From contig JAIEMJ010000001.1 of NCBI GenBank assembly GCA_019752335.1, positions 186,001 through 250,000 on the forward strand: a stretch of DNA of 64,000 nucleotides, read 5' to 3'. Position numbers and translations under genes: made by a program. This DNA is from Bryobacteraceae bacterium. GTDB lineage: Bacteria; Acidobacteriota; Terriglobia; Bryobacterales; Bryobacteraceae. The notes below the pieces were generated by a model. That model saw only the letters and a list, made by a program, of their open reading frames with translations, was not told where the DNA came from and searched no databases. Positions 3,238 through 56,060 of this stretch are shown in pieces. The stretch's first letter is position 1, and the number at the start of each line of letters is the position of its first letter.

Positions 3238-3250
3238 GGGCTGTCTGCCT

Positions 3251-3358: not shown

Positions 3359-3383
3359 TAAAGCATTTATAATCAATGCTTTA
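3359..3383. repeat. AT-rich inverted repeat at the acyltransferase stop codon
   Basis: Arms TAAAGCAT (3359-3366) and ATGCTTTA (3376-3383) are perfect 8-nt complements with a 9-nt loop. The right arm contains the stop codon of the minus-strand acyltransferase gene. There is no T-run after the hairpin in the direction of that gene, so it is not a classic intrinsic terminator. It may be a second structure belonging to the transposon flank. Confidence 0.45.
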
Positions 3384-4241
3384 TGGGCGAGTCTTCCAGC
3401 GGCGGTGGATCCACAGCCACTGACTCGGATACTCGCGGACCGCTCGCTCGACGGCCGCTTGCACCGCTTGCGTGTCGGCCACTTCGTCACCCGTCATCGG
3501 GACCGGCGCGTAGAACTTCAGAACGAAGCCCTCCTGGCGCCAGACGGCGAACCCCGGCAGGACCGTTGCGCCGCTCCGGGCGGCGATCTTGGCGAAGACT
3601 GGCGACGTGCAGGCCGGCGTGCCGAAGAAGTCGACGAAGATGCCTTCGTTGGCCATCGCGTTCTGGTCCACCAGAATGCCGACGGCCTCGTTGGCCCGTA
3701 GCGCGCGAATCAGGCCGCGGGCGAAGTCCTTCTTCTCGATCACGCGATTCCCGCTGCCCGCGCGACGCTTCGCGACGAAAGCGTCCAGCAGCGGGTTGTC
3801 GAGCGGCCGCACGACGAACGACATCGGCTCCGTCAGCAGAGCGTGCGCGTAGGCGGAGAGCTCCCAGTTGCCGAGGTGGCCCGTGGCGAAAAGGACACCC
3901 TTGCCCCGGCGCTTGGCTTCCTCGTAGTGTTCGAACCCCTCATAGCGAATCCATTCGCCGATATTGCCCTGATGGAGCGATGGCAGGTGGGCGAAGCTGT
4001 GGAGCAGGCGCCCGAGTGAAACGAAGTTACCGTCGATCAACTCGTCCGCATTCGCGTAACCCGCGCGCAGGAGGTTTTCGCGGCCCGCTCGCCGCAGACG
4101 CGGCGCGGCGCGATCCAGCAGCCGGGCGATGCGGAGCGCCAACCGGAGCGACGCGTCCCGGGGCAGGGAAGCCAACGTGCCCACCACGGCCCTAGCGACC
4201 AGGCACTCGGCCCAATTGCGAAATGAGGAACGCTGTTTCAC
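3381..4241 (-). CDS. LpxL/HtrB-family acyltransferase
   Basis: 286 residues, near the ~300 of lipid A late acyltransferases. Enzymes of this family add an acyl chain from acyl-ACP to Kdo-lipid A or a related lipid at the inner membrane. The catalytic HX4E motif is present as TGHLGNWE, followed by the PLDNPLLD region (RPLDNPLLDAFVAKRR) and the VDQN segment (GILVDQNA) with FFGTPA, all conserved in LpxL/LpxM. The C-terminal WLWIHRRWKTRP is the standard ending. No long N-terminal membrane anchor is evident, though residues 10-30 are hydrophobic. The exact acceptor cannot be read from sequence. The stop codon lies within an inverted repeat. Confidence 0.85.
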   Translation of the reverse strand: MKQRSSFRNWAECLVARAVVGTLASLPRDASLRLALRIARLLDRAAPRLRRAGRENLLRAGYANADELIDGNFVSLGRLLHSFAHLPSLHQGNIGEWIRYEGFEHYEEAKRRGKGVLFATGHLGNWELSAYAHALLTEPMSFVVRPLDNPLLDAFVAKRRAGSGNRVIEKKDFARGLIRALRANEAVGILVDQNAMANEGIFVDFFGTPACTSPVFAKIAARSGATVLPGFAVWRQEGFVLKFYAPVPMTGDEVADTQAVQAAVERAVREYPSQWLWIHRRWKTRP

Positions 4242-4263
4242 GAAGCGTACAAAGCGGACAGGG

Positions 4264-5334
4264 TCAGAGCTCGCTCCAGCGTACGACCCGTTTCTCGTAA
4301 ATCGACTTCCGCCCCAACATGGCCACCAACGTCGACTGCCGCGCGCTAACGATGTCGTTCAGCGGACGCTTCTTGCCGCGTGCGTTCCCGAGGAAGGCTT
4401 CGATGGAGAGCTCGGTGCTATCGCCCGGCGCGAAGTCCAGCTTCTGCGCGGGCCGCTTGTCGAGGTAGTGGACCATGCCCGTCGCCAGGTCCACCGCGCC
4501 GCGCTCGGCATAGACGCGCTCCTTGATGCCGGAGAAGCCGGGCGGATCGAAGTACATCTGGCTAAAGTTGAGGCGCTTGCCGTCGGCCCATTCGTACAGG
4601 ACGCTGTAGTTATCCAGAATGCTGCGGCCCCTCGGTTCATCCCGCAAGAGGTTGATCCCGCCCGACCCGTAGGCCGTCTCCGGCGGACCGCCCGCGGCCC
4701 ACACCATCAAGTCGATAATGTGGCATGCCTGCTCGACAATGATGTCGCCGGAGCGTTTCTTATCGAAGTACCATTCGATGTGGTGCGGCAAATCGCCCGT
4801 GTGCCGGTGGGCGTGCAAGTAGATCACCTTGCCGAGCGCGCCGCTGTGCAGATGCGCCATCGACGCCGCGCGGGCGGGATCGTGGCGCAGTTGAAAGCCC
4901 AGTTGGAGAATGCCCTTGGCGGACTTCGCCGCCGCGGCGACCGCCGCGCACTCGGCGGGATCCAGTGCGACGGGCTTTTCGAGATAGACATGCTTGCCCA
5001 CCTCCAGCGTCGCTACCGCGATGGCCTTGTGCGTATCCACCGGTGTCGCGATGATTACGGCGTCGACGTCCTTGTGCGCGTCGAGCATTTGGCGAAAATC
5101 AGTGTAAAGCTTAGGCGCGGGTTGGCCTGCTTCGGTGATGCGCGCGGCGGCTGCGTTGCGGCGTGCTTCATCCAGGTCCGCGACGGCGACGATGCGCGCG
5201 CCCTTGGCCTTCAGCGCGGCGGCCAGCAGCGCCGTGCCCCGGTTGCCGACGCCGATGATCGCGACGCGCATCTCGTCACTGGGAGCTTGGGCCAGCAGGA
5301 CGGCTGGCGCGGCGACTAGGGTTCGTCTGGTCAT
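4264..5334 (-). CDS. Secreted Gfo/Idh/MocA-family oxidoreductase
   Basis: 356 residues. The ATG at 5334 overlaps the stop of the upstream FG-GAP gene by ATGA, which fixes the start; an in-frame extension upstream is an artefact. A short leader (MTRRTLVAAPAVLLAQAP) suggests export, possibly Tat, as is common for acidobacterial members. The Rossmann motif is GVGNRG, the nucleotide/sugar-binding EKP motif is YLEKPVALDP, and the second-domain catalytic His region is EQACHIIDLM. Family members oxidise, reduce or epimerise sugar derivatives with a tightly bound NAD(P). The substrate is unknown; the coupled FG-GAP gene and the general sugar context fit carbohydrate turnover. Confidence 0.85.
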   Translation of the reverse strand: MTRRTLVAAPAVLLAQAPSDEMRVAIIGVGNRGTALLAAALKAKGARIVAVADLDEARRNAAAARITEAGQPAPKLYTDFRQMLDAHKDVDAVIIATPVDTHKAIAVATLEVGKHVYLEKPVALDPAECAAVAAAAKSAKGILQLGFQLRHDPARAASMAHLHSGALGKVIYLHAHRHTGDLPHHIEWYFDKKRSGDIIVEQACHIIDLMVWAAGGPPETAYGSGGINLLRDEPRGRSILDNYSVLYEWADGKRLNFSQMYFDPPGFSGIKERVYAERGAVDLATGMVHYLDKRPAQKLDFAPGDSTELSIEAFLGNARGKKRPLNDIVSARQSTLVAMLGRKSIYEKRVVRWSEL

Positions 5335-6452
5335 TTCGTTTTGTTCTCGAAGAGGTAGAGGCCGCTCTTGCCGGGCGTGAGGAAGTCGAGGTCGCCGTCG
5401 CCGTCGAGGTCGGCCACCGGTAGCTGCATGCCGGCCCCGGTGCGGGTGCTGAAGTCGATGATGTGGCGCGCCCATTCCACCGGCTTGCCCGGCGTCACCA
5501 GGCTCTCGTACCAGTAGATGCCCAACGGTTCGCGCTCCCCGGGATCCTTGCCGTTGTGGGCCATATAGCGCTTGCCAGTGAGGATATCGGGCTTGCCGTC
5601 CTTGTTGAGGTCGACGACGGTGACGGCGTGCGGCTGGCTCCAGCTTTCGTCGATGGTGAACTTCTTCCATTTACCATCGCCGAGATTCTCGAAGTAGAAC
5701 AAGCCGTAGTCGTGCGCGTTGCCGGCGATCACGTCGGGCCGTTTGTCGCCGTTCACGTCGAGGACGTGCATGAAGCTCAGCGACTTCGTGCCCAGTGGTG
5801 CGAAGTCTTCGTGGGCCACCCAATTGCCGCTGCGTGGATCCGCCGGGGCTTCGAACCAGCCGGTGGGGGTGAGGATATCGGTGCGGCCGTCGCCGTTCAC
5901 GTCGCCCGCGCCGATGCCGTGGCCGAAGCTTTTGCTGGCTACTTCGTGCCGCACCCAGGCATTGCCCCGATACTCGTACCAGCTCATCGCCGCGGCCGTA
6001 CCGCCGAATTGCGGCAGCACTTCGCGAGCCTTGCCGTCGTTGTCGAGATCCACCAGGAAGCAGAACTCAACGTTGTAGCCTTCCTGAATGAACTGGCGCT
6101 TCCACGCGCCCTTGGCCTTGCCGGGATTCTTCCAAAACGTAAGCGACTTGCCAAACCAGGCGCAAGAGACGATGTCGGTGTGGCCGTCGCCGTCGAAGTC
6201 CGCGGCGAGGTCAGAGAAGTTGTCGATGTAGTTGTTCGTGTAGTCGAGTTCGCGGAAGCGATGCTGCTTATAGGCCGGTCCCTCATACCAGTTCTCGCCG
6301 GAAATGAGGTCGAGCTTGCCGTCGCCGTTGAGGTCCGCGATGGTGGCGCTCTCGTTGCCACCCAGGTCGATCGTGCGTTTTTCGAAGGCGAGTTCGGCTG
6401 GACGGGTGGCGGCCAAGGCGGTCAGCGTCACCAAAAGAAGAGATTTGCGCAT
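5331..6452 (-). CDS. Secreted FG-GAP/VCBS repeat protein
   Basis: 373 residues. The ATG at 6452 follows GGGAG and gives a signal peptide (MRKSLLLVTLTALAATRP). At least six repeats of the form D-x-[DN]-x-D-G are visible (DLNGDGK, DFDGDGHTD, DLDNDGK, DVNGDGRTD, DVNGDKRPD, DLNKDGKPD, DLDGDGDLD), the calcium-binding loops of an FG-GAP beta-propeller. Such proteins are secreted and usually bind or scaffold; no catalytic motif is seen. It is translationally coupled by ATGA to the following oxidoreductase. Its start codon abuts the putative promoter of the divergent tRNA-Glu gene. Confidence 0.85.
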   Translation of the reverse strand: MRKSLLLVTLTALAATRPAELAFEKRTIDLGGNESATIADLNGDGKLDLISGENWYEGPAYKQHRFRELDYTNNYIDNFSDLAADFDGDGHTDIVSCAWFGKSLTFWKNPGKAKGAWKRQFIQEGYNVEFCFLVDLDNDGKAREVLPQFGGTAAAMSWYEYRGNAWVRHEVASKSFGHGIGAGDVNGDGRTDILTPTGWFEAPADPRSGNWVAHEDFAPLGTKSLSFMHVLDVNGDKRPDVIAGNAHDYGLFYFENLGDGKWKKFTIDESWSQPHAVTVVDLNKDGKPDILTGKRYMAHNGKDPGEREPLGIYWYESLVTPGKPVEWARHIIDFSTRTGAGMQLPVADLDGDGDLDFLTPGKSGLYLFENKTK

Positions 6453-6481
6453 TGCTCCCAGATTGTATCGCAGGGTATACT
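6452..6481 (+). promoter_or_regulatory. Putative sigma-70 promoter of tRNA-Glu
   Basis: TTGCTC (6452-6457), an 18-nt spacer and TATACT (6476-6481) precede the tRNA by 23 nt. The -10 box matches 5 of 6; the -35 box matches only the TTG. It overlaps the start codon of the divergent FG-GAP gene. Confidence 0.5.
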
Positions 6482-6504
6482 CAAAGGGTTCGTTTCCCAC
6501 GTGT

Positions 6505-6579
6505 GGCGCTATCGTCTAACGGTTAGGACAGAGCCCTCTCAAGGCTTAAATAGGGGTTCGATTCCCCTTAGCGCTACCA
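6505..6579 (+). tRNA. tRNA-Glu (anticodon CTC)
   Basis: The cloverleaf is complete: acceptor GGCGCTA/TAGCGCT, D-arm GTCT-AACGGTTA-GGAC, anticodon stem GAGCC/GGCTT with loop CTCTCAA (anticodon CTC), T-arm AGGGG-TTCGATT-CCCCT, discriminator A and an encoded CCA. The D-loop sequence is typical of bacterial tRNA-Glu. The 3' half overlaps the end of a protein gene on the other strand (6546-6579). Confidence 0.93.
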
Positions 6580-7487
6580 TTCATCCAACGCTTCACCCAA
6601 ATCGCCGGCGCCAGCAACGCGCGCGAAAGCCGGTACGAGTGTGAATTCAACAAACTCTCCCGCACTTCGGTGAACTCCTTCTCCCGCTCATACAAGAACC
6701 GCAGGAGCTCATTGCGCCGCGAGAACTGCTCGTCCAGCGCGTCGACATCGGCCTCGGTCAGCGTATGCCCGGCCCGTAGATGCGCAGGCATTCGCCAGGG
6801 CACATACACGGTGCTGTGCGCGGGCGCGGTCTCAGCGGCGGGGCGTTCAGCGGTGTAGTAGTAGATCGCCAAGGACCGGCGCGACAGCGTCTCGTCCGGT
6901 ACCTGCACGCGGCGAAAACCGTGCCACGAAGTCTCCGTAGTTTCAAAGATCACACAGCGATTCAGCAGCGGCACCACGCTGACCACTTCGTCATCTTCGG
7001 GGGCACCCCAGGGATCCCGACGTAATTCCAGGCAGCCGCCCCAGGCCGCTTCCCAGCGCGGGTTCAGGAAGATGATCAGGTTCAGGCGGCGATGGGTGTG
7101 GGTCTTCGGGTGATAGTTGAAATCGACGTGGATGTCGAGGTCCTGCCCGTGCCGGTTCTCGTGGGTGCCGCCGCCGAAGTAGTGCGGATCGTAGAGCAGA
7201 CGCGGGATACCGGTAATGGCCTCGATCTTCGCGAGAAACTCCGGCGACTGAATCAGCGTATCGAACTGCCGGTAAGCCGGGCCGATTTGCGGGAGCTTCT
7301 CCACCACGGCCTTGGCGCCGGGTAAGCCCATCTCGTTCAAGGCCTGCTTCTGGTCAAAGGCGGGGAACTCACGCAAGAGCGCCGCGCAGAACTCTTCGCT
7401 GAGGAAGTTATCGATGATGACATGCCGGAACGGGCGCGCGTTTGCGAAGGCGTCCCGGTTCGCGGCGATGGGCCAGTCGCGCAGCAT
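6546..7487 (-). CDS. 2-oxoglutarate/Fe(II)-dependent dioxygenase (prolyl-4-hydroxylase-like)
   Basis: 313 residues. The ATG at 7487 follows AGGGAG, which itself lies in the end of the upstream transporter gene; a longer in-frame reading upstream overlaps that gene and is rejected. Iron ligands are visible as H120-x-D122 (HVDFNYHP) and the distal H189 (SWHGF), with R203/R204 (LSRRSLAIYYY) as the 2OG-binding basic residue. The strand pattern is that of a 2OG-FeII_Oxy_3 double-stranded helix. The C-terminal ~90 residues are charged and helical and of unknown role. The last ten residues and the stop are encoded antisense to the tRNA-Glu 3' half. The substrate is unknown. Confidence 0.85.
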   Translation of the reverse strand: MLRDWPIAANRDAFANARPFRHVIIDNFLSEEFCAALLREFPAFDQKQALNEMGLPGAKAVVEKLPQIGPAYRQFDTLIQSPEFLAKIEAITGIPRLLYDPHYFGGGTHENRHGQDLDIHVDFNYHPKTHTHRRLNLIIFLNPRWEAAWGGCLELRRDPWGAPEDDEVVSVVPLLNRCVIFETTETSWHGFRRVQVPDETLSRRSLAIYYYTAERPAAETAPAHSTVYVPWRMPAHLRAGHTLTEADVDALDEQFSRRNELLRFLYEREKEFTEVRESLLNSHSYRLSRALLAPAIWVKRWMNGSAKGNRTPI

Positions 7488-7492
7488 TCTCC

Positions 7493-8938
<1,446 letters not shown>

Positions 8939-44552: not shown

Positions 44553-46034
44553 TTAGGCGTCGCGCGGACGCACGTACCACTCGAGCGACTCTTCCCGGCT
44601 CAGCCTCGCGGGTTCCTGGCTGGCTTCGGGATGCGTCGCGCGGAAGCGCGCCAGCATCAGCCCTTGCAAGCGTTCTACCTCCCGCGGATGCTTCGCGGCC
44701 ACGTTCGTAAACTCGCCTTCGTCGTTTTGCAGATCGAAGAGCTTGACGTAGCGTCCCGGCTTCGGATTCTCGGTCACATACCCGTCGGTGCGCGCGCGCC
44801 GGCCAGAGCCAAAGATGCACTTCCAGCGCCGGTCCATCGCGTAGCACTCCTCGTTCTCCAAATAGGTGCTGAAGACATGATCCCGGGGCTTGGTGGATTT
44901 ACCCTCGAGATACGGCCGCAGGGACTGGCCGTGGCGCACGGGCAGAGCCTCCAGGCCGAGCAAGTCCGTCAACGTGTGCGGCAGGTCAATGTGTTCCGTG
45001 AAGTCCCGCACCGTCCCCTGCCGGATCTTGCCGGGCCAACGCATCATCAACGGCACATGCAGCGCCGGCATGTAGCCGCAGTGCTTCTCGAAACGCCCGT
45101 GTTGGCCCAGCGAGTAGCCGTGGTCTGCCAGATACACGACGAGCGTGTTCTGTTCAAGGCCATGTTTCTTGAGCAGGTCCAAGGCGCGGCCGACGTTGCG
45201 ATCGAGGAAACGAACGGAGGTGTAATAAGCGGCGATGATGCCTTGTTTCTCCGCAGGGCTTAGGTCGCGAAAGATCAGCGGAATCTGGCCGGCGTCTTCC
45301 GGGCCGACGCGGGGCACGGGAAAGCGCCGAGGATCGAAGGCGTTCCGGTCTTCGAGCGGAAAGTCGTATGGCGAGTGCGGCTCCTGAAAGCTCAGCCAAA
45401 GCGCGAAAGGCTGCTGGCTCGCCGCGCCGAGGAATTCGTCCGCCAGCCGTAACTGATACAGCGACTTCATTTCGGCCTCCACGCGTCCGAAGGGCAGCTT
45501 CTCGGCGTTCAGCCAGATGCGCGCCGGGTCCTGAAAGGGCTTCCACGGCGGCTTCACGCGCACGCCTTCCGGCAACGCGGACGGCTTCACGGTGGCCATC
45601 CAGGCGCGCTGCACTTCGCCTTCGGTCTGGCAATAGTCGAAGCCGTGGAGTCCGGCGCGGCCTGGTTGGTTGAAGTGCATCTTGCCGATCACGCCGGTGC
45701 GGTAGCCGGCCTGCTTCAACTGCTTGGCCAGCGTTGGCTTCTCCGTCGAAAGCGGGGTCTTGAGGACGGTCACTCCGGCCGCGTGCGGCAATTGCCCGGT
45801 CAACAGACTCTGCCGCGAAGGCGTGCAGACCGGCGAATTGCAGAAGTGGCGAGCGAAGCGCGTACCCTGGCTCGCCAGGCGATCCAGATTCGGCGTCTCG
45901 GCCAGCGCATTGCCCTGCGCGCCCAGGACGTAGCCCGCATGGTCATCTGCGATGATGTACAGCAAGTTGGGCCGCTTCGGAGCTTGGTAGGCGGTTCCGG
46001 CAAAGGCCGCCAAGGCGTGACGACGAGAGGTCAT
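44553..46034 (-). CDS. Secreted sulfatase (formylglycine-dependent)
   Basis: 493 residues with a Tat-like leader (MTSRRHALAAFAGTAY). Metal ligands D30/D31 (YIIADDHAG) and the sulfatase signature C70-T-P-S-R74 (CxPSR) are intact; C70 must be oxidised to formylglycine by an FGE not seen in the window. LYIIADDH, NLDRLASQGTRF and YLADHGYSLGQHGRFEKHCGY (third metal site) are family blocks. Overall it resembles the choline/iduronate-type sulfatases common in Acidobacteria and Planctomycetes. Likely acts on sulfated glycans in the periplasm; the substrate cannot be named. Confidence 0.88.
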   Translation of the reverse strand: MTSRRHALAAFAGTAYQAPKRPNLLYIIADDHAGYVLGAQGNALAETPNLDRLASQGTRFARHFCNSPVCTPSRQSLLTGQLPHAAGVTVLKTPLSTEKPTLAKQLKQAGYRTGVIGKMHFNQPGRAGLHGFDYCQTEGEVQRAWMATVKPSALPEGVRVKPPWKPFQDPARIWLNAEKLPFGRVEAEMKSLYQLRLADEFLGAASQQPFALWLSFQEPHSPYDFPLEDRNAFDPRRFPVPRVGPEDAGQIPLIFRDLSPAEKQGIIAAYYTSVRFLDRNVGRALDLLKKHGLEQNTLVVYLADHGYSLGQHGRFEKHCGYMPALHVPLMMRWPGKIRQGTVRDFTEHIDLPHTLTDLLGLEALPVRHGQSLRPYLEGKSTKPRDHVFSTYLENEECYAMDRRWKCIFGSGRRARTDGYVTENPKPGRYVKLFDLQNDEGEFTNVAAKHPREVERLQGLMLARFRATHPEASQEPARLSREESLEWYVRPRDA

Positions 46035-46053: not shown

Positions 46054-46443
46054 TCAGCGTTTGGGCGGCAGCATCGTATGCGCTACCAGGTGGACAGGAA
46101 TCGCGCCCAGGTGGGCATTCCGATGGACCAACTCGAAGCCACGGATCCGCGCTGCCGCCGCAATCAGGCAGTCGGCTGCCGGAATGCGGACTCCCGCTTC
46201 GTGCCGCAGCGCGAAAGCCGCGTCGGCGACCTCCCGGGTGATGTCCACCGTGCCGGCAATGGACTCAGCATAGGCCATCATCAGCTCTGGCCCTCCCTCC
46301 TCATCGCGTAGCTTCATCCGCAACTCGAACCAAGTTACAGCGGCGACATGCCCCTGCCTTTCGGCCAGGATGCGCTCCACCAGGTCGCTGCCCGGGTCGG
46401 CGTAGCAGTGGGCGAGGATGGCGGAGGTATCGAGGAGATACAT
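46054..46443 (-). CDS. vapC: VapC-like PIN-domain toxin
   Basis: 129 residues. PIN acidic residues are visible: D5 in MYLLDTSAIL, Glu in VTWFELRMKL, and Asp in IPAADCLIAAAA. All required carboxylates appear intact, so the RNase is probably active. PIN toxins cleave tRNA or rRNA when their antitoxin is lost. The ATG starts just after the stop of the AbrB-type antitoxin gene. Confidence 0.87.
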   Translation of the reverse strand: MYLLDTSAILAHCYADPGSDLVERILAERQGHVAAVTWFELRMKLRDEEGGPELMMAYAESIAGTVDITREVADAAFALRHEAGVRIPAADCLIAAAARIRGFELVHRNAHLGAIPVHLVAHTMLPPKR

Positions 46444-46444
46444 C

Positions 46445-46687
46445 CTACTCCATGTCCATTTCGCGCTCAGCGATCAACTCTTCCACCAGGTTCCGATTCT
46501 TTAGCTGCCGACCCAATTCCTGGGCGCGCGCCAAAAGCTGCTTGACGGTGGGCTTTACTTCGATGATCATCGTGCCCGGCTTCTCGCCCCGGCTCCACTC
46601 GAACTTATTGCCCGGCTCCAAGCCCATCTCGCGAACCATGTCGGCCGGAACGGTTACTTGATTCTTCCCAGTCAAGGTGCTTACCAT
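46445..46687 (-). CDS. AbrB/MazE-type antitoxin
   Basis: 80 residues. The swapped-hairpin DNA-binding domain is clear: LTGKNQVTVPADMVREMGLEPGNKFEW. The charged C-terminal helix (NRNLVEELIAEREMD) would clamp the VapC toxin. Such pairs repress their own promoter. It overlaps no gene and is followed by the toxin within 1 nt. The first 70 nt upstream hold the divergent start of the TldD-like gene. Confidence 0.88.
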   Translation of the reverse strand: MVSTLTGKNQVTVPADMVREMGLEPGNKFEWSRGEKPGTMIIEVKPTVKQLLARAQELGRQLKNRNLVEELIAEREMDME

Positions 46688-46759: not shown

Positions 46760-48445
46760 GTGCGCACCCCCTTTTCCGCGCTGGCTCGGCTAGTCGCTCC
46801 TTTACTTTTGCTCCAATCCGCGCCCGCTCAGGCGCCGCTTGTGGAAATTCTGTCCAGCGAATTGGAACGGAACTTCGCGGCCCTCAAAGCGAAGGCGGAT
46901 CCGCCACCCTACTTCCTCGCCTACGCCGTTACCGAGCAAGAGGTGGAGAGCGTCTCCGCCAGCCTGGGATCCTTGAATTCGCGCAACCGCAGCCAACGGC
47001 GCAATCTCGACATCACCATGCGCGTGGGCTCTCCCCAACTCGACAACTACCGCCGAGTCCGCGGCGACCTGCCGCAGTTCACCGCCGGCGCCCCCATTAC
47101 CATCGACGACTCCCCGGATGCCATCAAGCGGCGCCTGTGGAGTGAGACGGATCGCGTCTATCGTCTGGCTTCACAACGCCTGCTAAACGTCAAGACCAAC
47201 CAGCAGGTGCAGGTGGAAACCAAGGACGATGCCGGCGACTTCAGCACCGCGGAGAAAGTGGTCGCCGTTTCCGCCGTGCCGCCGCTCAAATTTAAGGCCG
47301 AGGAATGGCAAACCAAGCTGCGCAAATGGTCCGCCGACTTCGGCGCGAAGCCCGGCATCCTGTCCGCCTCCATCACGGTGGTGGCGCAGCGCGAAACCAA
47401 AACCTTCGTCAACAGCGAGGGCACCAGGCTGCAACATGGCCGTACCTTTGCCCGTTTGATCTTCGGCGCCCAGGCCAAGGCGGCCGACGGCATGGACCTG
47501 GCGACCAGCGAGATTTTGGACGCCGAAGATGCAAGCCGTTTGCCTGACGAAAAGACGGTGAAAGCTGCCATGGCGAAGGTGGAGCGCGACCTGGTGAACC
47601 TGCTGGCGGCGCCCGTTGTCGAGCCGTTTGTCGGCCCGGCGATTCTCTCGGGCCGCGCCTCCGGCGTTTTCTTTCACGAAATCTTCGGCCATCGCATTGA
47701 GGGCCACCGCCAGAAGGACGAAAGCGATGGACAGACGTTCGCGAAGAGTGTCGGCACGAAGATTCTGCCGGAGTTTTTGTCCGTCACCTTCGACGCCACC
47801 AAGCGCTCGTTGGACGGGACGGACTTGAATGGCTGGTATGAATACGACGACGAGGGCGTGAAAGCGCGCCCGGTGAGCATTGTTGACAAGGGCATTCTGC
47901 GGGGATTCCTGCTTTCCCGTTCCCCCCTTACTGGTTTTCCCGGTTCCAATGGCCACGGGCGCCGCCAAGCCGGCAGAGAGATCGTTCCGCGCCAGTCGAA
48001 CTTGATCGTGCAGTCCGCCAATCAGGTGAAGACCAGTGAACTACGCGCTCTGTTGCTGGCCGAATTGAAGAAGCAGAATAAGCCCTACGGCTTGTATTTC
48101 GAGAAGGTGGATTCGGGCTACACCACTACGGGAAGGCGAGGGTTGCAGGCCTTCACCGTGGTGCCGCAAATCGTGTACCGGGTTTACGCCGACGGCCGTC
48201 CGGATGAGCTAGTCCGAGGGGCGGACATTGTCGGGACTCCTCTAACGGCCTTCGCCAAGATTGCGGCGACCTCCGACAAGAACGAAATCTTCAATGGCGT
48301 CTGTGGTGCCGAGAGCGGCAGTGTCCCCGTGTCAGCCACGTCTCCCGCCATCTTCGTCAGCGAAGTGGAGATTCAGAAGAAAGAACGTTCCCAGGACCGG
48401 CCGCCGATCCTACCGCCACCGACCGTGTCGCAGGGAGGGTTCTAA
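46760..48445 (+). CDS. TldD-like metalloprotease with signal peptide
   Basis: 561 residues from a GTG at 46760 preceded by GAGG; it begins MRTPFSALARLVAPLLLLQSAPAQA, a convincing signal peptide with an AQA cleavage site. The zinc motif HExxxH is H306-E-I-F-G-H311 followed by RIEGH, the TldD form. The C-terminal domain carries YTTTGRRGLQAFTVVPQIVYRVY, conserved in TldD/TldE. In E. coli TldD-TldE is a cytoplasmic heterodimer that degrades unfolded peptides such as CcdA and processes microcin. This copy appears exported, unlike the well-studied members. It is followed 1 nt later by its TldE-like partner. Confidence 0.85.
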   Translation: MRTPFSALARLVAPLLLLQSAPAQAPLVEILSSELERNFAALKAKADPPPYFLAYAVTEQEVESVSASLGSLNSRNRSQRRNLDITMRVGSPQLDNYRRVRGDLPQFTAGAPITIDDSPDAIKRRLWSETDRVYRLASQRLLNVKTNQQVQVETKDDAGDFSTAEKVVAVSAVPPLKFKAEEWQTKLRKWSADFGAKPGILSASITVVAQRETKTFVNSEGTRLQHGRTFARLIFGAQAKAADGMDLATSEILDAEDASRLPDEKTVKAAMAKVERDLVNLLAAPVVEPFVGPAILSGRASGVFFHEIFGHRIEGHRQKDESDGQTFAKSVGTKILPEFLSVTFDATKRSLDGTDLNGWYEYDDEGVKARPVSIVDKGILRGFLLSRSPLTGFPGSNGHGRRQAGREIVPRQSNLIVQSANQVKTSELRALLLAELKKQNKPYGLYFEKVDSGYTTTGRRGLQAFTVVPQIVYRVYADGRPDELVRGADIVGTPLTAFAKIAATSDKNEIFNGVCGAESGSVPVSATSPAIFVSEVEIQKKERSQDRPPILPPPTVSQGGF

Positions 48446-48446
48446 C

Positions 48447-50195
48447 GTGAAGCCACTAGTTTATTGCTTACTCGCCGGGAGCTTGGCGGCGCAAAGTACG
48501 GATCCGATTCTAAAGGTGCTGACTCAGGAAATGGAGCGCTCGCGTGGTCTGCGCATCGCCGGCGGCGCCGATGTGCCTTACTTCTTCGAGTACAGCGTCG
48601 ACGACGTACGATCCTACGTCGTAAACGCCACACTGGGCGGCCTGATCGACGAGACGCGCAATCGGGCCCGCGTGCCGCAGGTCCGTGTCCGCGTGGGCGA
48701 TTACGCCTTCGATAACTCGAACTTCGCGCTCTCTGACGCGAATTTCTCGGCCCGCTATGACACCGGCTTATTGGCCCAGGACGACAATCCCCTAGCCTTG
48801 CGCCAGCAGCTTTGGCTCGCCACGGACCGCGCGTTCAAGAATGCCCTGGAAAGTATCGGGCGTAAGCGCTCCGCCATGCGCAGCGTCACCGCGGCCCCTG
48901 ATCCTCTGCCGGACTTCTGGAAGGCTGAGCCGGTGAAGTTAGTCGTGAACACGACGTCGGCGGCGCTCGATGAAGCGGCTTGGAAGAAGCGAGTGCTCGC
49001 CGCCTCGGCCCGTTTCAAGGCCTTTCCCGCGGTACTCAATTCATCGGTGGAGTTAGAAAGCCTGGTGAATACTTCTTACCTGGTGAATTCGGAAGGTTCT
49101 GAAATTAAGTACCCCGACAATATTCACTACATTCGTGTCCGCGCCAGTGGGATGGCGGCGGACGGCTCCACCGTGCGTAGCCACGAAGTGTTCCATGCCG
49201 TGGATGTACAACGGCTGCCCAGCGAAGCGGACCTGAACAAGGCGGTGGACGAAATCGGCCGGCAAGTAACGGCCTTGGCCACGGCGCCCGTCGGCGATGC
49301 CTATGCGGGGCCAATTCTTTTTGAGGGCCCCGCTGGCGCCCAATTGATCGCCGAGTTGCTGGGCTCTCAACTCAGCCTGCCGCGGCGGCCCATCATGAAC
49401 GCGGGGCAGGGAAATCGCTTCACCGCTTCTGACCTCGAAGGCCGGCTCGGTTCCCGCATTCTGCCGTCAGCCTTTACCTTGGTCGACGATCCCACGCAGA
49501 ACGAATTCCGCGGCCGCCCGCTCATCGGTTCCTATCCCGTCGACGGCGAGGCCATTGTTCCGAAACCGGTTACCGTCATCGAGAACGGCGTCTTTAAGAC
49601 GCCGCTCCTCTCCCGGCAGCCGATCGCTGGCTTCACTGCATCGAACGGCCGTGGCCGCTTGCCCGGCAGTTACGGCCATCGCTTCGCGACGTTGAGTAAC
49701 CTGTTCGTGAAATCCACCGAAGCGGTAAGCGACGCTGACCTGAAAAAGCGACTATTGGAGCTAGTGAAACAGCGCAGTAAGCCGTTTGGCATTTTAGTGA
49801 AACAGATGGACTATCCGTCCTCCGCCGGCGGCGACGAGTTACGGCGGCTGGCGGCAAGCCTCGGCAATAACTCCAGTGGTACGGTCCTGAGTTCGCCGCT
49901 ACTCGTTTACCGGATTTATCCCGATGGCAAGGAAGAGCTGATGCGCGGAGTTCGTTTCCGGGGCTTGAATCTGCGGTCGCTGAAGGACATTCTCTCGGCC
50001 TCCACCGAGTTACACCAGTTCGACTTCATCGGCAACCGCGGACCTTTCGCCCTGATGGGTGTCGGCGGCTACATTTTCCCGGCTAGCGTCGTCGCGCCGT
50101 CGTTGTTGTTTGACGATCTCGAAATCGAGAAGCCGACGATCGAAGTGCCGCCGCCTCCTACCGTCCCGCCGCCGCCACTCAGCACCACCAATTAA
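48447..50195 (+). CDS. TldE/PmbA-like partner with signal peptide, no zinc motif
   Basis: 582 residues from a GTG at 48447, 1 nt after the TldD-like stop. Leader: MKPLVYCLLAGSLAAQS. It is homologous in layout to the preceding protein (ADVPYFFEYSVDDV, then GPAGAQLIAELLGSQL where the HExxxH would be). The metal motif is absent, as in TldE/PmbA, the non-catalytic subunit of the heterodimer. The C-terminal PPPPTVPPPP tail is a proline-rich linker of unknown role; the TldD-like neighbour ends in a similar PPPTVSQGGF. Heterodimerisation is inferred from the pairing. Confidence 0.8.
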   Translation: MKPLVYCLLAGSLAAQSTDPILKVLTQEMERSRGLRIAGGADVPYFFEYSVDDVRSYVVNATLGGLIDETRNRARVPQVRVRVGDYAFDNSNFALSDANFSARYDTGLLAQDDNPLALRQQLWLATDRAFKNALESIGRKRSAMRSVTAAPDPLPDFWKAEPVKLVVNTTSAALDEAAWKKRVLAASARFKAFPAVLNSSVELESLVNTSYLVNSEGSEIKYPDNIHYIRVRASGMAADGSTVRSHEVFHAVDVQRLPSEADLNKAVDEIGRQVTALATAPVGDAYAGPILFEGPAGAQLIAELLGSQLSLPRRPIMNAGQGNRFTASDLEGRLGSRILPSAFTLVDDPTQNEFRGRPLIGSYPVDGEAIVPKPVTVIENGVFKTPLLSRQPIAGFTASNGRGRLPGSYGHRFATLSNLFVKSTEAVSDADLKKRLLELVKQRSKPFGILVKQMDYPSSAGGDELRRLAASLGNNSSGTVLSSPLLVYRIYPDGKEELMRGVRFRGLNLRSLKDILSASTELHQFDFIGNRGPFALMGVGGYIFPASVVAPSLLFDDLEIEKPTIEVPPPPTVPPPPLSTTN

Positions 50196-50201
50196 CTTAC
50201 C

Positions 50202-52538
50202 TTGAGCATCATTAGCCGCGCCGTTTTTCGCGAGATTGCCACCAGCGCCCTGCTGGGTACGATGCTGTTTACCTTTATTCTCTTTCTACGCAACCTGGGT
50301 AAGCTCGCCGAGCAGTTAGTTCGCGGTTCGGCCTCGCCGGAGACGGTGGGCTATCTATCGGGCCTGGTCTTTGTTCCGACGCTTACCTTCGCCGTGCCGG
50401 TGGGCGTCCTGGTGGGCATCCTGATCGGCCTCAGCCGGCAATCGAGCGACAACGAGATCATTGCCCTGCGCGCCTCCGGCGTTCCCGCGCGACGGTTGAT
50501 GTGGCCCGTGATGACCTTTGCCTTTCTGGGCTTCCTGGTCGCCGGGGCCGCCAGTTTATGGCTGACTCCCTGGTCCATTCGCGAGACCGGCCGCATCTTG
50601 AATGAACTTGCGGCCGTCCAACTTACCGCGGAGATTCAGGAACGCGTTTTCGATGAGCAGTTTCCGAATCTGATTCTCTACGTCGGTGGCGTCGACCCTG
50701 GCCCGGTGGTCCGCTGGCGTAATGTCTTTATGGCCGATACCACCCCGGCCGAGCAGCGCCCCGGAGGCATCCGGCAGGAAGCGCTGGGCCCGCGCGTTAC
50801 CTTCGCCGAAGAAGCCATCGCCGTCGCGGACCCCAAGAGCAACCGCATCCAGCTCTCCCTCCGCAACGCCCGGTCGCATGAATTGGGGAAAGAACCGACG
50901 GATGACTTCAACTCCGCCTTCCCTAGCGGCGATCAGGCGCTCGAAGCAAAGAAGCCCGCCGAGCGCGTCGTGCGTCCGTACCCCGAGATGGACTCGCTGC
51001 CCCTGGCTCGCCTCTCTTATGGCAAGGGGCAACGCAATATTGATGCATTGATTGAATTACACCAGCGCCTGGCCTTGCCCCTGGCTTGTTTCCTGCTGGC
51101 CATGGTAGGCTTGCCGCTCGGCATTTCGCAACGCAAAGCGGGGAAGAGCGTCTCGTTCGTTCTTACGGTACTGCTCGCTTTCTTCTATTACATGGGCTTT
51201 ATCAGCCTGGTGAGTCTCGCGCGGCAGGGCAAACTGCCGGTGGAGTTCGCCGTCTGGCTGCCCAACGCGCTATTTGGTCTAGCGGGCATGATCTTGCTGC
51301 TGCGCCTGGAGCGGCCCGGCGACTTCGACCTGGTCGGCCTCATCTCCGGCCGGGTACGGGAGACGTTTTCCTCGCTGGCCCAGCGCTTCGAGAGCCGCTC
51401 CGAGCGCGGCGCTCCCAAACAAGCGCGCCGTTGGGCGATCCTGCCCCAGATTATCGATACTTACGTGCTGAGTACGTTTCTCTTTTACTTCGCGCTTTTG
51501 CTACTCACGTGCGTGCTGCTAACGGAGGTCTTCACGTTCTTCGAGTTACTCGGTGACATTGTCAAAAACAATATCGCCATGACGCGCGTGCTCACTTATC
51601 TCTATTTCCTGATTCCGAAATTCATCTACGATTTCACGCCCGTCAGCGTCCTGGTGGCGGTGCTGGTCACGTTCGGCGTATTGAGCAAGAGCAACGAGGT
51701 TACCGCCTTTAAGGCCTGCGGTGTCAGTCTCTATCGCCTGATGGCGCCCGTACTCGCTGCCAGCGCCGTCTTGAGTGGAGCCCTGTTCGCTTTCGACTAT
51801 TACTATGTCCCGGACGCCAATCGCAAACAGGATGCGATTCGCAACGAAATTAAAGGCAACGCTCCGCAAAGTTTCCTGCGGCCGGACCGCAAATACATTT
51901 ATGGCCAAGGCTCCCGCATTTACTATTACCGCTACTTCGAGCCCGCTGACAGCGTCATGCTCGACGTCAACGTCTACGAGATCGATCCCAAGCGCTTTCG
52001 CCTGCAAGAAGTGATCAGCGCGGAGCGGGCGCGTTGGGAGCCCTCTATCAAAACCTGGGTCTTTCAGAATGGCTACCGCCGGATCTTCGATGGCGTCCGC
52101 GTGGCGAACTTCAACGACTTTCGCGGCGGGTCGGCCAGCTTCCCTCAGTTGAGTGAGCCGCCAAGTTACTTCCTGAAAGAAGTAAAGCTCTCCAGCCAGA
52201 TGAACTTCCACGAGTTGCGGAAATACATGGGCGAACTACAACAGAGTGGTTTCGATACCACGCGCCTCCAGGTGCAGTATCACAACAAATTCTCCGTCCC
52301 GCTCTTCGCGCTGATCATGGCGCTGCTGGCCGCGCCGTTCGGCTTCCTCGCTGGCAACCGCGGCGCGATGACCGGCATCGGCGTTAGCCTGGGCATCGGC
52401 ATCGCCTACCTCACGTTGAACAAGCTCTTCGAGCAGATCGGCAACTTGAATCAGCTCCCCGCCCAAATTGCCGCCTGGTCACCCGACGTGATCTTCTCGT
52501 TGGCCGGCCTGTACCTCATCGCTCGGGTGCGAACCTGA
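50202..52538 (+). CDS. LptF-LptG fusion, LPS export permease
   Basis: 778 residues, about twice the usual 360-400 of a single LptF or LptG. Two YjgP/YjgQ units are visible in tandem. Unit 1 spans ~1-395: SRAVFREIATSALLGTMLFTF, then LALPLACFLLAMVGLPLGIS. Unit 2 spans ~420-778: IDTYVLSTFLFYFALLLLTC, SKSNEVTAFKACGVSLYRL, a periplasmic beta-jellyroll, and FSVPLFALIMALLAAPFGFLAG. LptF and LptG, with LptB, extract LPS from the inner membrane. The start is a TTG without a clear ribosome site, chosen because it precedes TM1. It sits 6 nt downstream of the TldE-like gene. Confidence 0.9.
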   Translation: MSIISRAVFREIATSALLGTMLFTFILFLRNLGKLAEQLVRGSASPETVGYLSGLVFVPTLTFAVPVGVLVGILIGLSRQSSDNEIIALRASGVPARRLMWPVMTFAFLGFLVAGAASLWLTPWSIRETGRILNELAAVQLTAEIQERVFDEQFPNLILYVGGVDPGPVVRWRNVFMADTTPAEQRPGGIRQEALGPRVTFAEEAIAVADPKSNRIQLSLRNARSHELGKEPTDDFNSAFPSGDQALEAKKPAERVVRPYPEMDSLPLARLSYGKGQRNIDALIELHQRLALPLACFLLAMVGLPLGISQRKAGKSVSFVLTVLLAFFYYMGFISLVSLARQGKLPVEFAVWLPNALFGLAGMILLLRLERPGDFDLVGLISGRVRETFSSLAQRFESRSERGAPKQARRWAILPQIIDTYVLSTFLFYFALLLLTCVLLTEVFTFFELLGDIVKNNIAMTRVLTYLYFLIPKFIYDFTPVSVLVAVLVTFGVLSKSNEVTAFKACGVSLYRLMAPVLAASAVLSGALFAFDYYYVPDANRKQDAIRNEIKGNAPQSFLRPDRKYIYGQGSRIYYYRYFEPADSVMLDVNVYEIDPKRFRLQEVISAERARWEPSIKTWVFQNGYRRIFDGVRVANFNDFRGGSASFPQLSEPPSYFLKEVKLSSQMNFHELRKYMGELQQSGFDTTRLQVQYHNKFSVPLFALIMALLAAPFGFLAGNRGAMTGIGVSLGIGIAYLTLNKLFEQIGNLNQLPAQIAAWSPDVIFSLAGLYLIARVRT

Positions 52539-52601: not shown

Positions 52602-55600
52602 ATGAAAAACGCATTGTGGGTCTTCTTTCTGGTTAGTTGTCTCTCCGCGCAGAACGAGCGCGGATCCATCACGGGCATCGTCACGGACCCAACGGGGGCC
52701 GCTGTGCCCGGGGCCATCGTCACGGTGACGAATCGTGATACCAATGTCGCGAACAAGAGTACGGCTACCGCGACAGGCGAGTACAGCGTCCCCAATCTCA
52801 GTCCGGGCACCTACCGGATTGAGGTGAGTTCCACGGGCTTCAAACGCTATTTGCAGCAGAATGCCGTGGTGACCGCGTCGTCCACCGTGCGTATCGACGC
52901 CGTGTTGCAACTGGGCCAGGTAACGGATCAGATCGAAGTAACGGCGGCGGCGAGCGTCCTGCAGACCGACAGTTCGCGGGTGTCGACCTCCGTGCAGAAT
53001 AAGCTAGTGGACGAACTGCCGTTGGTGGTGGGTGGCGCCATGCGGAGTCCGTTTAACCTGGTGTCCGTCGCCGCGGAGGCCCGTGGCCAGGGTCAGCAAC
53101 TATCCATCGGCGGCGGCCAGGCCGCGCAGTGGGACGCCACGCTTGATGGCCATTCCGTCGGCACGAATCGCTCGGGAGATACGGCCGAGGCGGCCCTCAA
53201 TACACCTTCGGTGGAAGCGCTCACCGAGTTCAGCGTCGACACCAATGGCTTCAAAGCCGAGTACGGCCAGGCCGGTGGCGGCGTGATGACGTTTGCCTCT
53301 AAGTCCGGCACGAACTCCCTGCACGGATCCGTCTACAACTTCCTGCGCAACGACAAATTGGATGCGCGCGGTTTCTTCGCGCAGACGCGGTCGATCTACC
53401 GGCAGAACGACTTTGGCTTTTCTGCTTCCGGCCCGGTCGTGATTCCCAAACTCTACAATGGCCGCAATAAGAGCTTTTGGTTTGTCTCCTACGAAGGCTT
53501 CCGGAATCGCGTTGGCGCGAATGCAACCATTCTGAGTGTGCCGGCGCCGGAGATGTACGCCGGCGACTTCCGCAATTGGGTGGACGCGAACAATCGTTTG
53601 TTGCCGGTCTACGATCCGGCGACGACGCGTACCAGTGGTAGTAGTTCGGTGCGCGACATTTTCCCTAACAACCAGATTCCCGTCAGCCGGTTCTCCTCCA
53701 CCGCCAATGCCATCGCCTCCTTTGGCAAAGGGGTGGTTCCGAATCGCGGCTTTGCCCCAGGCACCAGTAACTACGTCCGTAATAACTACATCGTCACCGG
53801 TGGCACGAACGTCACTCCCACCGACAAGTGGAGCATCAAAGGTGACCAGGTACTCGGCAACAATCACCGGGTGAGCTTTCTCTGGAATCAGACCACCTTC
53901 TTCAACAAGCCCGGTCCCGGTGGCCCTCCTGGTCTCCCTGGCACCATTTACAATGGCCAGATTCAGGATTGGGATACCAGCGCGATTCGTCTTGTCCACG
54001 ATTGGACGATCTCCTCCCGCATGGTGAATCATCTTTCGTTTACGCGGAACACTTTCATCAAGAACTCCTATTCGCCGAACGTGGATCAGAACTGGAAGGA
54101 TAAAGTCTGCATCAAGAATGCTGTCGACTGTAACCAGAATTTCCCTACCATTAACTTCGACGGCTTGACGGCTTGGGGCGGGGCTTCCTACAACGGCACG
54201 AATCAACCGGGCTGGGGCTTGAAGAATGACTTGAGCTACATTCGCGGTTCGCACACCATGAAGTTCGGCTTTCACCATCAGAATCAGAACGCCGATGGCT
54301 TCGGCCAGCAGGACATCGCCGGACGGGCGGATTTTAGCTTTCTGGGCACCAGCGTGCCCGGCGCGACAACTCAAACCAGCGGCAGTTCCTTCGCCTCATT
54401 CCTATTGGGCGATGCCTTCCTGGGCCGCACGGAAACCATTCGCGCCGTTACGCAGCGGTACCCCTACTTTGGCTTCTATGCCCAGGACGATTGGCGCGTG
54501 AACCGTAAATTGACGATTAACTTTGGTCTGCGCTACGACTTTACCCAGCCGCCGACCAATAAGAAAGACGAGTATTCTGACTTTAATCCTTCGCGTCCGA
54601 ACCCTGGCGCCGATGGACGCTTGGGCGCCCTGTGGTTTGCTGGATTCGGCCCAGGCCGTGAGAATCGCCGTAGCCTCGTCCCCGGCTGGTACGGTGGCTG
54701 GGGCCCTCGCCTCGGTATCGCCTACACTCCGGACCAGAAGACGACCTTCCGCGTCGCCTTTGGCCGCTCCTTCTCGCGCGTTACCGCGGTGCAGGGAAGT
54801 GGCCACTTCGCGGGCTTCATTGGCCAGTATGTCTTCAACAATACCTCGCAGGGAGTAACGCCGACCTTCAAGCTGGACCAGGGGCTACCTCCCTACACCC
54901 TGCCGCCGTCAATTGACCCCGCGTTCTCCAATCAGAACGATGTCGACTATTGGCAGGGCCAGGAAGCGACGCGCGCGCCGGAGAATCTCTTCTGGACCTT
55001 CAATATTCAGCGCCAGGTGGCGGCAAATACCGTCGTAGAGATCGGCTACAACGCCACCGTGGGTACCCACTTACAAACCGGTTTGCTCACGCTCAATCAA
55101 CTCAACACCGACGTCTATAAGGGGCTCGTCTCGCGCCTGGGCGTCACCCAGGCGCAATCGATTCTGCGTGGCGATATTCTGGCGCCGGCGGCCGTGGCGG
55201 CCGGCATCGCCGTTCCCTATCCAAGCTTTCTGAATCAACGCATCCGCACTGTGAACCAGGCGCTGCGTCCGTATCCGCAGTATCAGAACATCAACACCGA
55301 CGTGCAGAACGGCGATAAGAGCGGCCACTCCAGCTACCACGCCATGGTGATCAAAATGGATCGCCGCTTCTCGAAGGGACTTACCCTCAATTGGAACTAC
55401 GTCTTCTCGAAAATCCTGACGGACTCCGATACTTACTTCGCGAATTCCGTAGCCGCTATGGATCACTACAACCGGCGCCTGGAGAAATCCATCGGCGCTT
55501 TTGACCAAACGCACGCCTTCAAGTTCTCCACGCTGTACGAACTACCTTTCGGTAAGGGACAGCGCTGGCTCACCAGTGGTCCGTTGAACCATTTGCTGGG

Positions 55601-56060
55601 TGGTTGGCGTTTGGCGGCGATTCAGAGTTATAACAGCGGCAACCCGGTCGCTTTGACTCGGAATAACCCCTTGCCGATCTTCAACGAAATCAGCCGGCCG
55701 CTGGTGGATAGCTACGACAACTGGCGCGGACCGGTAGCCGGCAGTAAATTTGACCCTGCCGTCGACCGTTTCTTCAAGCCAGCCAGCGCGTTTCCGGCCC
55801 AGCCCAATGACTTTGGCAACGCCACGCGTTTCAATCCGAAGTTGCGTGGCTTCTGGGGCCAGAATGAAAACATCAGCTTGGCCAAAACCTTTCGGGTGAC
55901 CGAAAGCATCCGTGTGGATTTCCGCGCCGAAGCGTTCAACTTACTCAACCGCGTCATCTTCGGTACGGGCAACAACAACCTCAACTCGAACGCCTTCGGC
56001 CAGGTAACCGGCGCGAATACTCCCCGGCAGATGCAAGCGGGACTCAAGGTTTATTGGTAG
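52602..56060 (+). CDS. TonB-dependent receptor, Oar-like with carboxypeptidase-regulatory domain
   Basis: 1152 residues with a signal peptide (MKNALWVFFLVSCLSAQ). Domain order: CarboxypepD_reg (SITGIVTDPTGAAVPGAIV, ~22-105), plug (VDELPLVVGGAMRSPFNLV, ~130-260), then a large barrel with alternating aromatic strands, ending QAGLKVYW with C-terminal Trp for outer-membrane insertion. It resembles TonB receptor 1 in layout but not in plug sequence, so they probably take different ligands. The putative promoter at 52540-52569 serves it alone. Its 3' end overlaps the PQQ-dehydrogenase gene by 17 nt. Confidence 0.9.
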   Translation: MKNALWVFFLVSCLSAQNERGSITGIVTDPTGAAVPGAIVTVTNRDTNVANKSTATATGEYSVPNLSPGTYRIEVSSTGFKRYLQQNAVVTASSTVRIDAVLQLGQVTDQIEVTAAASVLQTDSSRVSTSVQNKLVDELPLVVGGAMRSPFNLVSVAAEARGQGQQLSIGGGQAAQWDATLDGHSVGTNRSGDTAEAALNTPSVEALTEFSVDTNGFKAEYGQAGGGVMTFASKSGTNSLHGSVYNFLRNDKLDARGFFAQTRSIYRQNDFGFSASGPVVIPKLYNGRNKSFWFVSYEGFRNRVGANATILSVPAPEMYAGDFRNWVDANNRLLPVYDPATTRTSGSSSVRDIFPNNQIPVSRFSSTANAIASFGKGVVPNRGFAPGTSNYVRNNYIVTGGTNVTPTDKWSIKGDQVLGNNHRVSFLWNQTTFFNKPGPGGPPGLPGTIYNGQIQDWDTSAIRLVHDWTISSRMVNHLSFTRNTFIKNSYSPNVDQNWKDKVCIKNAVDCNQNFPTINFDGLTAWGGASYNGTNQPGWGLKNDLSYIRGSHTMKFGFHHQNQNADGFGQQDIAGRADFSFLGTSVPGATTQTSGSSFASFLLGDAFLGRTETIRAVTQRYPYFGFYAQDDWRVNRKLTINFGLRYDFTQPPTNKKDEYSDFNPSRPNPGADGRLGALWFAGFGPGRENRRSLVPGWYGGWGPRLGIAYTPDQKTTFRVAFGRSFSRVTAVQGSGHFAGFIGQYVFNNTSQGVTPTFKLDQGLPPYTLPPSIDPAFSNQNDVDYWQGQEATRAPENLFWTFNIQRQVAANTVVEIGYNATVGTHLQTGLLTLNQLNTDVYKGLVSRLGVTQAQSILRGDILAPAAVAAGIAVPYPSFLNQRIRTVNQALRPYPQYQNINTDVQNGDKSGHSSYHAMVIKMDRRFSKGLTLNWNYVFSKILTDSDTYFANSVAAMDHYNRRLEKSIGAFDQTHAFKFSTLYELPFGKGQRWLTSGPLNHLLGGWRLAAIQSYNSGNPVALTRNNPLPIFNEISRPLVDSYDNWRGPVAGSKFDPAVDRFFKPASAFPAQPNDFGNATRFNPKLRGFWGQNENISLAKTFRVTESIRVDFRAEAFNLLNRVIFGTGNNNLNSNAFGQVTGANTPRQMQAGLKVYW

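What the first reader, a model, noticed from the sequence alone, without database searches (positions are those of the whole stretch)
46760..50195. TldD/TldE pair that carries signal peptides
Both proteins begin with clear signal peptides (ending AQA and AAQ) and have the catalytic/non-catalytic split of TldD (HExxxH) and TldE (motif lost). Characterised TldD-TldE act in the cytoplasm on unfolded peptides and microcins. A secreted pair would be an envelope peptidase of undescribed role, and it is followed directly by the LPS-export permease.
Basis: partly seen in the sequence, partly recalled or inferred. Interest (0 to 1): 0.57.

Follow-up and report, generated by a model that had tools for sequence, protein, structure and literature searches.

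The report
Exported second-origin TldD/TldE-like protease pair
Next to a soil bacterium's LPS-export gene sits a pair of proteins built like the TldD/TldE peptide-trimming protease but tagged for export from the cytoplasm; its inactive partner appears to have arisen separately from the known one, which points to an unstudied peptide-cutting machine in the cell envelope.

Summary
Confirmed and extended. Window 46760-48445 (TldD-like) and 48447-50195 (TldE-like) both begin with Sec-type leaders and fold like E. coli TldD/TldE (AF2 pLDDT 89; Z 32.6 and 26.4). Leaders recur in relatives: by a simple rule 69/77 and 35/38 catalytic, 61/73 and 33/36 partner subunits, against 1/53 partner subunits of other TldD/E pairs. 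The catalytic ligands are kept in the catalytic relatives and lost in the partners. Two genomes encode leader-TldD-TldE as one chain with the inner leader gone. The window's genome also has two other TldD/E pairs.

New: this 'TldE' does not group with canonical TldE/PmbA. It groups with its own catalytic partner, and a single TldE clade is rejected (AU p 9e-7, 2e-5, 3e-5). So the active/inactive heterodimer seems to have evolved twice. Class members occur in Acidobacteriota (49/297 genomes), the Kapabacteria-side phylum (24/247), WOR-3 (17/141) and rarely Verrucomicrobiota (1/240).

The LptF-LptG neighbour is real and is the genome's only LptF/G, but the link is nearly confined to one order: 54/56 testable Bryobacterales-like loci, 1/13 elsewhere. 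Most likely a periplasmic trimmer of unfolded peptides; substrate unknown, nothing tested at the bench.

The parts
46760..48445 (+). catalytic subunit (exported TldD-like metallopeptidase, class C), 561 aa, GTG start
   Evidence: (PF19289 87.3 bits, cut-off 22)
46760..46828 (+). Sec-type leader of the catalytic subunit (end point assumed after residue 23; cleavage site not determined)
47675..47692 (+). HEIFGH (HExxxH) metal-binding motif, H306/E307/H311
   Evidence: ligand roles of E. coli H262/E263/H267 from PMC5810440 passages
48302..48304 (+). Cys515, aligned with metal ligand Cys454 of E. coli; the only Cys of this protein
48392..48442 (+). proline-rich C-terminal tail QDRPPILPPPTVSQGGF; tail motif in 108 of 113 class C catalytic subunits, 4 of 107 non-C proteins
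48447..50195 (+). non-catalytic partner subunit (TldE-like in role; descends with the exported catalytic subunit), 582 aa, GTG start
   Evidence: (PF19289 53.6 bits)
48447..48491 (+). short leader of the partner subunit (15 aa assumed); holds its only Cys
50145..50192 (+). proline-rich C-terminal tail of the partner
50202..52538 (+). LptF-LptG fusion, LPS export permease, 778 aa; conserved downstream neighbour in Bryobacterales-like genomes

Best explanation
The pair is a periplasmic (cell-envelope) heterodimeric metallopeptidase of the TldD fold. Each subunit is exported separately by its own leader, in this window through Sec. The first subunit binds the metal through H306, H311 and Cys515 and uses E307 as general base. 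The second has lost all metal ligands and closes the shell, so that only unfolded chains can thread in and are clipped from the N end, as proposed for E. coli TldD/E. The heterodimer arose by a duplication of its own: the inactive partner is sister to the exported catalytic subunit, not to canonical TldE. Likely job: removing unfolded peptides and protein fragments in the envelope; in Bryobacterales it is probably made together with the LPS-export permease. Shown here by sequence or model: leaders, ligands, folds, pairing, phylogeny, gene order. Inferred: Sec use, location, heterodimer, metal, activity, substrate, cotranscription.
For: Fold: AF2 models pLDDT 89.4 and 88.6; best PDB matches are all TldD/TldE, catalytic subunit Z 32.6, rmsd 3.3, 451 aligned to 5njf_C, partner Z 26.4, rmsd 3.5, 440 aligned to 5njf_C. 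Ligands: H, E, G, H in 113 of 113 and Cys in 112 of 113 (one gap) catalytic subunits; in 107 partners the first His is never kept, the second in 3, the Cys is not among the residues listed. Export: rule-positive leaders 69/77 and 61/73, 35/38 and 33/36, 6/7 and 7/7; partners of other pairs 1/53. Leader identity (0.38) is near that of shuffled leaders (0.32) while mature parts are 0.62 identical, 18 of 75 relatives compared. In two genomes leader-TldD-TldE is one ORF (1129 and 1153 aa) without the inner leader. Low Cys: 0.28 and 0.22 per 100 aa against 0.73 and 0.53 in the canonical-type class. Pairing: 44 of 45 Acidobacteriota genomes with both genes have them adjacent. Separate origin; partner sequences match an archaeal TldD model (33 of 49) more often than the PmbA model (17 of 49). 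Own genome has two further pairs, one of canonical type without leaders.
Against: No localisation, complex or activity was measured. The leader rule is my own and crude; it misses 8/77 and 12/73, many of which look like leaders by eye. Some partners carry Tat-like leaders while their catalytic partner carries a Sec-like one, which is odd for one complex. Two Bryobacterales-like loci (L060, L061) have no partner gene beside the catalytic gene, and one genome has the two genes unlinked. Leaderless single relatives in family f25 fall inside class C in one tree with an unresolved place. The long class C stem (about 2 changes per site) leaves room for model error.
Confidence: 0.66

Rival explanations
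1. The pair serves LPS export itself: it trims or clears a peptide or protein of the Lpt bridge or of LPS-modifying steps, and is therefore kept in one operon with LptFG.
For: LptFG follows the pair directly in 54 of 56 testable Bryobacterales-like loci, and no other neighbour is conserved as widely (next best family in 16 loci); LptFG is the only LptF/G of the genome; a separate LptF-like gene follows one WOR-3 pair.
Against: Outside that order 12 of 13 testable loci lack it, including the Terriglobales examined. Of the 40 regions only three show an LptF/G match (two same-family genomes and the WOR-3 locus already counted). An essential gene downstream can hold an operon together without shared function.
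Confidence: 0.17
2. A maturation peptidase for an exported peptide (RiPP-like or signal peptide product) rather than a general degrader.
For: Characterised TldD/E mature microcin B17 and other RiPPs (PMC5810440 and PMC10885120 passages).
Against: No conserved modification gene was noticed near the pair, and the only widely shared neighbour is LptFG; no dedicated RiPP search was made and small ORFs under 110 aa were not compared.
Confidence: 0.1
3. Both are cytoplasmic and the hydrophobic N-termini are misjudged starts or membrane-facing segments.
For: Canonical TldD/E need no leader; start codons are GTG with only weak ribosome-binding context.
Against: Leaders recur in relatives from several phyla at two different genes and vanish from the inner subunit in natural fusions.
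Confidence: 0.05
4. The partner is a true TldE orthologue drawn to its neighbour by gene conversion or long-branch attraction.
For: Long stem; conversion between tandem copies before the phyla diverged cannot be excluded.
Against: Rejected with all columns (p 8.9e-7), with the C-terminal part only (p 1.75e-5) and with other rows (p 3.2e-5); several small shared insertions and the C-terminal tail are found in both class C subunits and not in the others; the decayed motif still shows Glu in 43 and Gly in 61 of 107 partners.
Confidence: 0.15

Closest known systems
E. coli TldD/TldE (PmbA), MEROPS M103 (earlier U62), PDB 5NJ5 to 5NJF
   Same: Fold of both subunits, HExxxH plus Cys metal site, one active and one inactive subunit
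   Different: Leaders on both subunits; under 20% structural-alignment identity; inactive partner of separate descent; Pfam N-terminal domain PF01523 not recognised; proline-rich C-terminal tails; genes adjacent and next to LptFG (in E. coli tldD and tldE lie apart)
Archaeal zinc metalloprotease TldD (NCBIfam NF040952)
   Same: Best NCBIfam match of the catalytic subunit (91 bits) and of many partner subunits (33 of 49)
   Different: Far below the curated cut-off (635 bits); no leader in that family as far as I recall
Tat-leader TldD with leaderless TldE (classes A and B of this report; own genome C9:31-34 kb)
   Same: A TldD/E-type pair predicted to leave the cytoplasm
   Different: Tat motif on the catalytic subunit only, partner without leader, canonical TldE descent
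Leptospira interrogans TldD in the exoproteome (PMC5881292, passages)
   Same: A TldD-type protein reported outside the cell
   Different: Reported from an exoproteome; the passages give no leader, and no link to this clade was tested

Membership tests
TldD/PmbA metallopeptidase superfamily (PF19289; M103) | C-terminal domain PF19289 above cut-off | tested here: met
   87.3 and 53.6 bits, cut-off 22; 54 of 54 members of A1 match
TldD/PmbA metallopeptidase superfamily (PF19289; M103) | N-terminal and central domains PF01523, PF19290 | tested here: inconclusive
   PF01523 not found in either protein, PF19290 16 bits in each, below cut-off 20.9; but the whole-chain fold aligns over 451 and 440 residues
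TldD/PmbA metallopeptidase superfamily (PF19289; M103) | Fold of solved TldD/TldE | tested here: met
   Z 32.6 and 26.4; the best row outside the family has Z 4.8 and 5.0
TldD (catalytic subunit) | HExxxH plus Cys metal ligands | tested here: met
   113/113 for H, E, H; 112/113 Cys, one gap
TldD (catalytic subunit) | NCBIfam equivalog cut-off (PRK10735, Arch TldD) | tested here: not met
   40.6 of 513 and 91 of 635 bits; so it is a TldD-like protein, not an equivalog
TldE/PmbA orthologue (partner) | Groups with canonical TldE in a tree | tested here: not met
   One clade of all partners rejected, AU p 8.86e-7, 1.75e-5, 3.22e-5
TldE/PmbA orthologue (partner) | Lack of metal ligands | tested here: met
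   First His 0/107, second 3/107, Cys not among the listed residues
Active TldD/E heterodimer | Physical complex and peptidase activity | not testable with these tools
   Indirect only: adjacency 44/45, two natural fusions
Sec/SPase I exported protein | n-h-c leader | tested here: met
   Own rule; no standard predictor available
Tat substrate | Twin-arginine motif in the leader | tested here: not met
   None in the window pair; present in some partner subunits of relatives
RiPP maturation protease | Linked precursor and modification genes | not tested
   Only a general look at neighbours

The most novel reading that the evidence does not exclude
The 'active plus inactive' TldD/E protease was invented twice. 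The second invention was exported, spread over several phyla, and became an envelope counterpart of the cytoplasmic peptide sharpener, tied in Bryobacterales to LPS export. In the same phylum the older pair was exported by another route: a Tat leader on TldD alone, with the leaderless TldE carried across as a folded passenger.
Probability: 0.3. Interest if true: 0.8.

Novelty: new variant of a known kind. Interest (0 to 1): 0.6.

Why it matters
TldD/E is common but its general role is unclear, and it is studied as a cytoplasmic enzyme. A separate exported lineage with its own inactive partner would be a natural repeat of the evolution of a heterodimeric protease, and would put an unexplored peptidase in the envelope of abundant soil bacteria. 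Cultured carriers named (Granulicella aggregans, Silvibacterium bohemicum, Paracidobacterium acidisoli) make export, complex formation and activity testable now.

Tried and rejected
Misannotated start: the longer TTG frame from 46658 gives no leader by the rule and overlaps the divergent antitoxin-like ORF, so GTG 46760 is preferred. Lipoprotein leader: no lipobox seen by eye. Tat export of the window pair: no RR motif. Partner as TldE orthologue: rejected by AU tests. PHROGs: no match. Plasmids: two distant matches only. PDB by sequence: TldD only for the first protein; nothing but a chance-level glutathione transferase match (E 1.7) for the second. Position of the leaderless single genes of family f25 inside class C: unresolved (grouping with the catalytic subunits not rejected, p 0.45; a further test did not finish). 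Fold matches outside the TldD/TldE entries (Z 5.0 or less) were taken as background.
Full report
WHAT IS THERE. The two ORFs are at the stated coordinates, one base apart, and LptF-LptG follows after 6 bases as a single 778-aa chain. Both leaders are visible and pass a simple n-h-c rule at the GTG starts. The window lies in a 7.2 Mb genome, and the closest relative (84% identity) is titled Bryobacter; most others are Bryobacterales or Acidobacteria. Pfam recognises only the TldD/PmbA C-terminal domain above cut-off. AF2 models built from 54 and 49 aligned relatives are confident (pLDDT 89.4 and 88.6). The nearest solved structures are E. coli TldD/TldE and other TldE/PmbA entries, far above anything else.

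CATALYTIC SITE. In E. coli the metal is held by H262, H267 and C454 and E263 is the base (PMC5810440, passages). The window protein has H306, E307, H311 and C515, its only cysteine. Over 113 catalytic subunits H, E, G, H are invariant and Cys is present in 112 (one gap). In 107 partners the first His is never present, the second in 3, and Cys is not among the residues listed for its column; Glu remains in 43 and Gly in 61, as if the motif had decayed in place.

EXPORT. Of 80 relatives found in genome contigs (109 loci passed, best 80 kept), 77 catalytic and 73 partner genes had room for a leader; 69 and 61 pass the rule. Many of the misses look like leaders by eye. In 40 further regions from Acidobacteriota, the Kapabacteria-side phylum and WOR-3, 35 of 38 catalytic subunits (two leaderless singles, L234 and L235, left out) and 33 of 36 partners pass (one region re-covers the locus of L081). 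In a 60-genome Acidobacteriota survey (121 ORFs extracted) class C gives 6/7 and 7/7, while partners of all other pairs give 1/53. Other catalytic subunits give 11/54, of which 10 carry a Tat motif and one is a doubtful upstream start. Classes were assigned from the TldD tree; partner ORFs in loci not placed on that tree were counted as class A. Two genomes, drawn from two different phyla, carry the pair as one ORF with one leader at the front and none before the second half (L224, 1129 aa; L258, 1153 aa). That speaks for a shared compartment and a physical pair. Mature class C subunits are poor in cysteine (0.28 and 0.22 per 100 aa, against 0.73 and 0.53 in class A).

A SEPARATE ORIGIN OF THE INACTIVE PARTNER. 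The window's two subunits are 29% identical, and their profiles align end to end. In a joint tree of three pair classes (A canonical with E. coli, B, C exported) the class C catalytic and partner subunits form one side of a branch with full support, while A and B partners group together (quick, careful, 100/100). Holding all partners as one clade is rejected: p 8.86e-7, 1.75e-5 with the C-terminal part alone, 3.22e-5 with other rows. Small insertions and the C-terminal tail are shared by both class C subunits and absent from A and B in the 38 rows compared. The tail motif is in 108/113 catalytic subunits, and my looser partner motif in 72/107 partners; the same two patterns occur in 4/107 and 2/107 non-C proteins. 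Partner sequences match an archaeal TldD model in 33 of 49 and the PmbA model in 17 of 49. The trees are unrooted, the class C stem is long, and early gene conversion cannot be excluded. In one search the deep WOR-3 catalytic subunits and two leaderless single genes branch near the partners with weak support, so the order of events inside class C is open.

DISTRIBUTION AND PAIRING. With the catalytic profile at E <= 1e-40: 49 of 297 Acidobacteriota genomes, 24 of 247 in the phylum of the Kapabacteria locus, 17 of 141 in the WOR-3 phylum (one search repeated it), 1 of 240 in the phylum of the Verrucomicrobiota locus. These are draws, not full counts, and the centre genomes that were known to carry the pair are included. 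In Acidobacteriota 45 of the 49 list both genes, and 44 of these 45 have them adjacent. The other four are one genome with only catalytic fragments listed, one with only the catalytic gene, and two leaderless singles of family f25. The window's genome holds three pairs: one canonical without leaders, one with a Tat-like leader on TldD only, and this one.

LPT NEIGHBOUR. Of 62 Bryobacterales-like loci, 54 have LptFG after the pair, 2 end after the partner, 4 end before it, and 2 (L060, L061) have no partner gene there: 54 of 56 testable. Of 18 other loci, 1 (L081, a separate LptF-like gene at 25% identity) has it, 5 end too early, and 12 do not. No other neighbour is conserved as widely. LptFG is the only LptF/G in the genome. 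This shows a stable gene order in one taxonomic order, not a shared function.

HOW IT MOST LIKELY WORKS. By homology to E. coli TldD/E, which admits only unfolded chains through a narrow channel and trims them from the N end (PMC5810440, passages), the exported pair would do the same in the periplasm. Steps shown: leaders, intact site, fold, pairing, gene order. Steps inferred: export, assembly, metal, activity, substrate. A general clean-up role fits a broad but patchy distribution without a conserved substrate gene; an Lpt-specific or RiPP-specific role is possible but less supported.

TAT-BORNE TldD. In the 60-genome survey 16 catalytic subunits of classes A and B carry convincing Tat leaders (17 rule matches, L125 dropped as chance); the own-genome L093 was missed by the rule but shows MFTRRQFIASAALA. 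Of the 16, 15 have a partner ORF in the fetched locus, and none of the 15 has a leader by the rule. The own genome encodes TatC. A folded heterodimer exported by the leader of one subunit would explain this; it was not tested.

LITERATURE. Library searches. Passages were read in PMC5810440, PMC5881292, PMC10885120 and PMC4605624; everything else was seen as search listings only. PMC10885120 repeats the view that TldE evolved from TldD with loss of catalytic residues; a second, separate event was not seen in its passages.

Noticed in passing
window 50202-52538 (+): LptF and LptG fused in one 778-aa protein, the only LptF/G match in the genome; the fusion recurs in the Bryobacterales-like loci.
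   Followed up: partly
own genome C9:31-34 kb (L093); L097, L099, L101, L110, L113, L116, L118, L119, L132, L135, L137, L149, L151, L154, L160, L161: TldD proteins of other classes with Tat leaders; where the partner TldE is adjacent it has no leader, suggesting passenger export of a folded pair.
   Followed up: partly
L224 (G801) 4524-7910 and L258 (G631) 1527-4985: Natural leader-TldD-TldE fusions in one ORF, in genomes drawn from two different phyla.
   Followed up: yes
L013-L015, L017-L020, L032, L033, L042, L046, L048, L239: Partner subunits with Tat-like leaders, several beside a catalytic partner with a Sec-like leader: two subunits of one presumed complex may use different export routes.
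   Followed up: no
L234 (G305), L235 (G031): Single leaderless class C-like TldD genes in family f25 with no partner found beside them; possible remnants of an older homodimeric form.
   Followed up: partly
L060, L061: Exported catalytic subunit without a partner gene next to it.
   Followed up: no
window 46054-46687 (-): PIN-domain toxin-like gene (46054-46443) with an 80-aa antitoxin-like ORF (46445-46687), divergent from the exported pair.
   Followed up: no
window 44553-46034 (-) and 52602-56060 (+): A sulfatase gene on one side and a carboxypeptidase-regulatory-domain outer-membrane beta-barrel protein on the other side of the locus.
   Followed up: no
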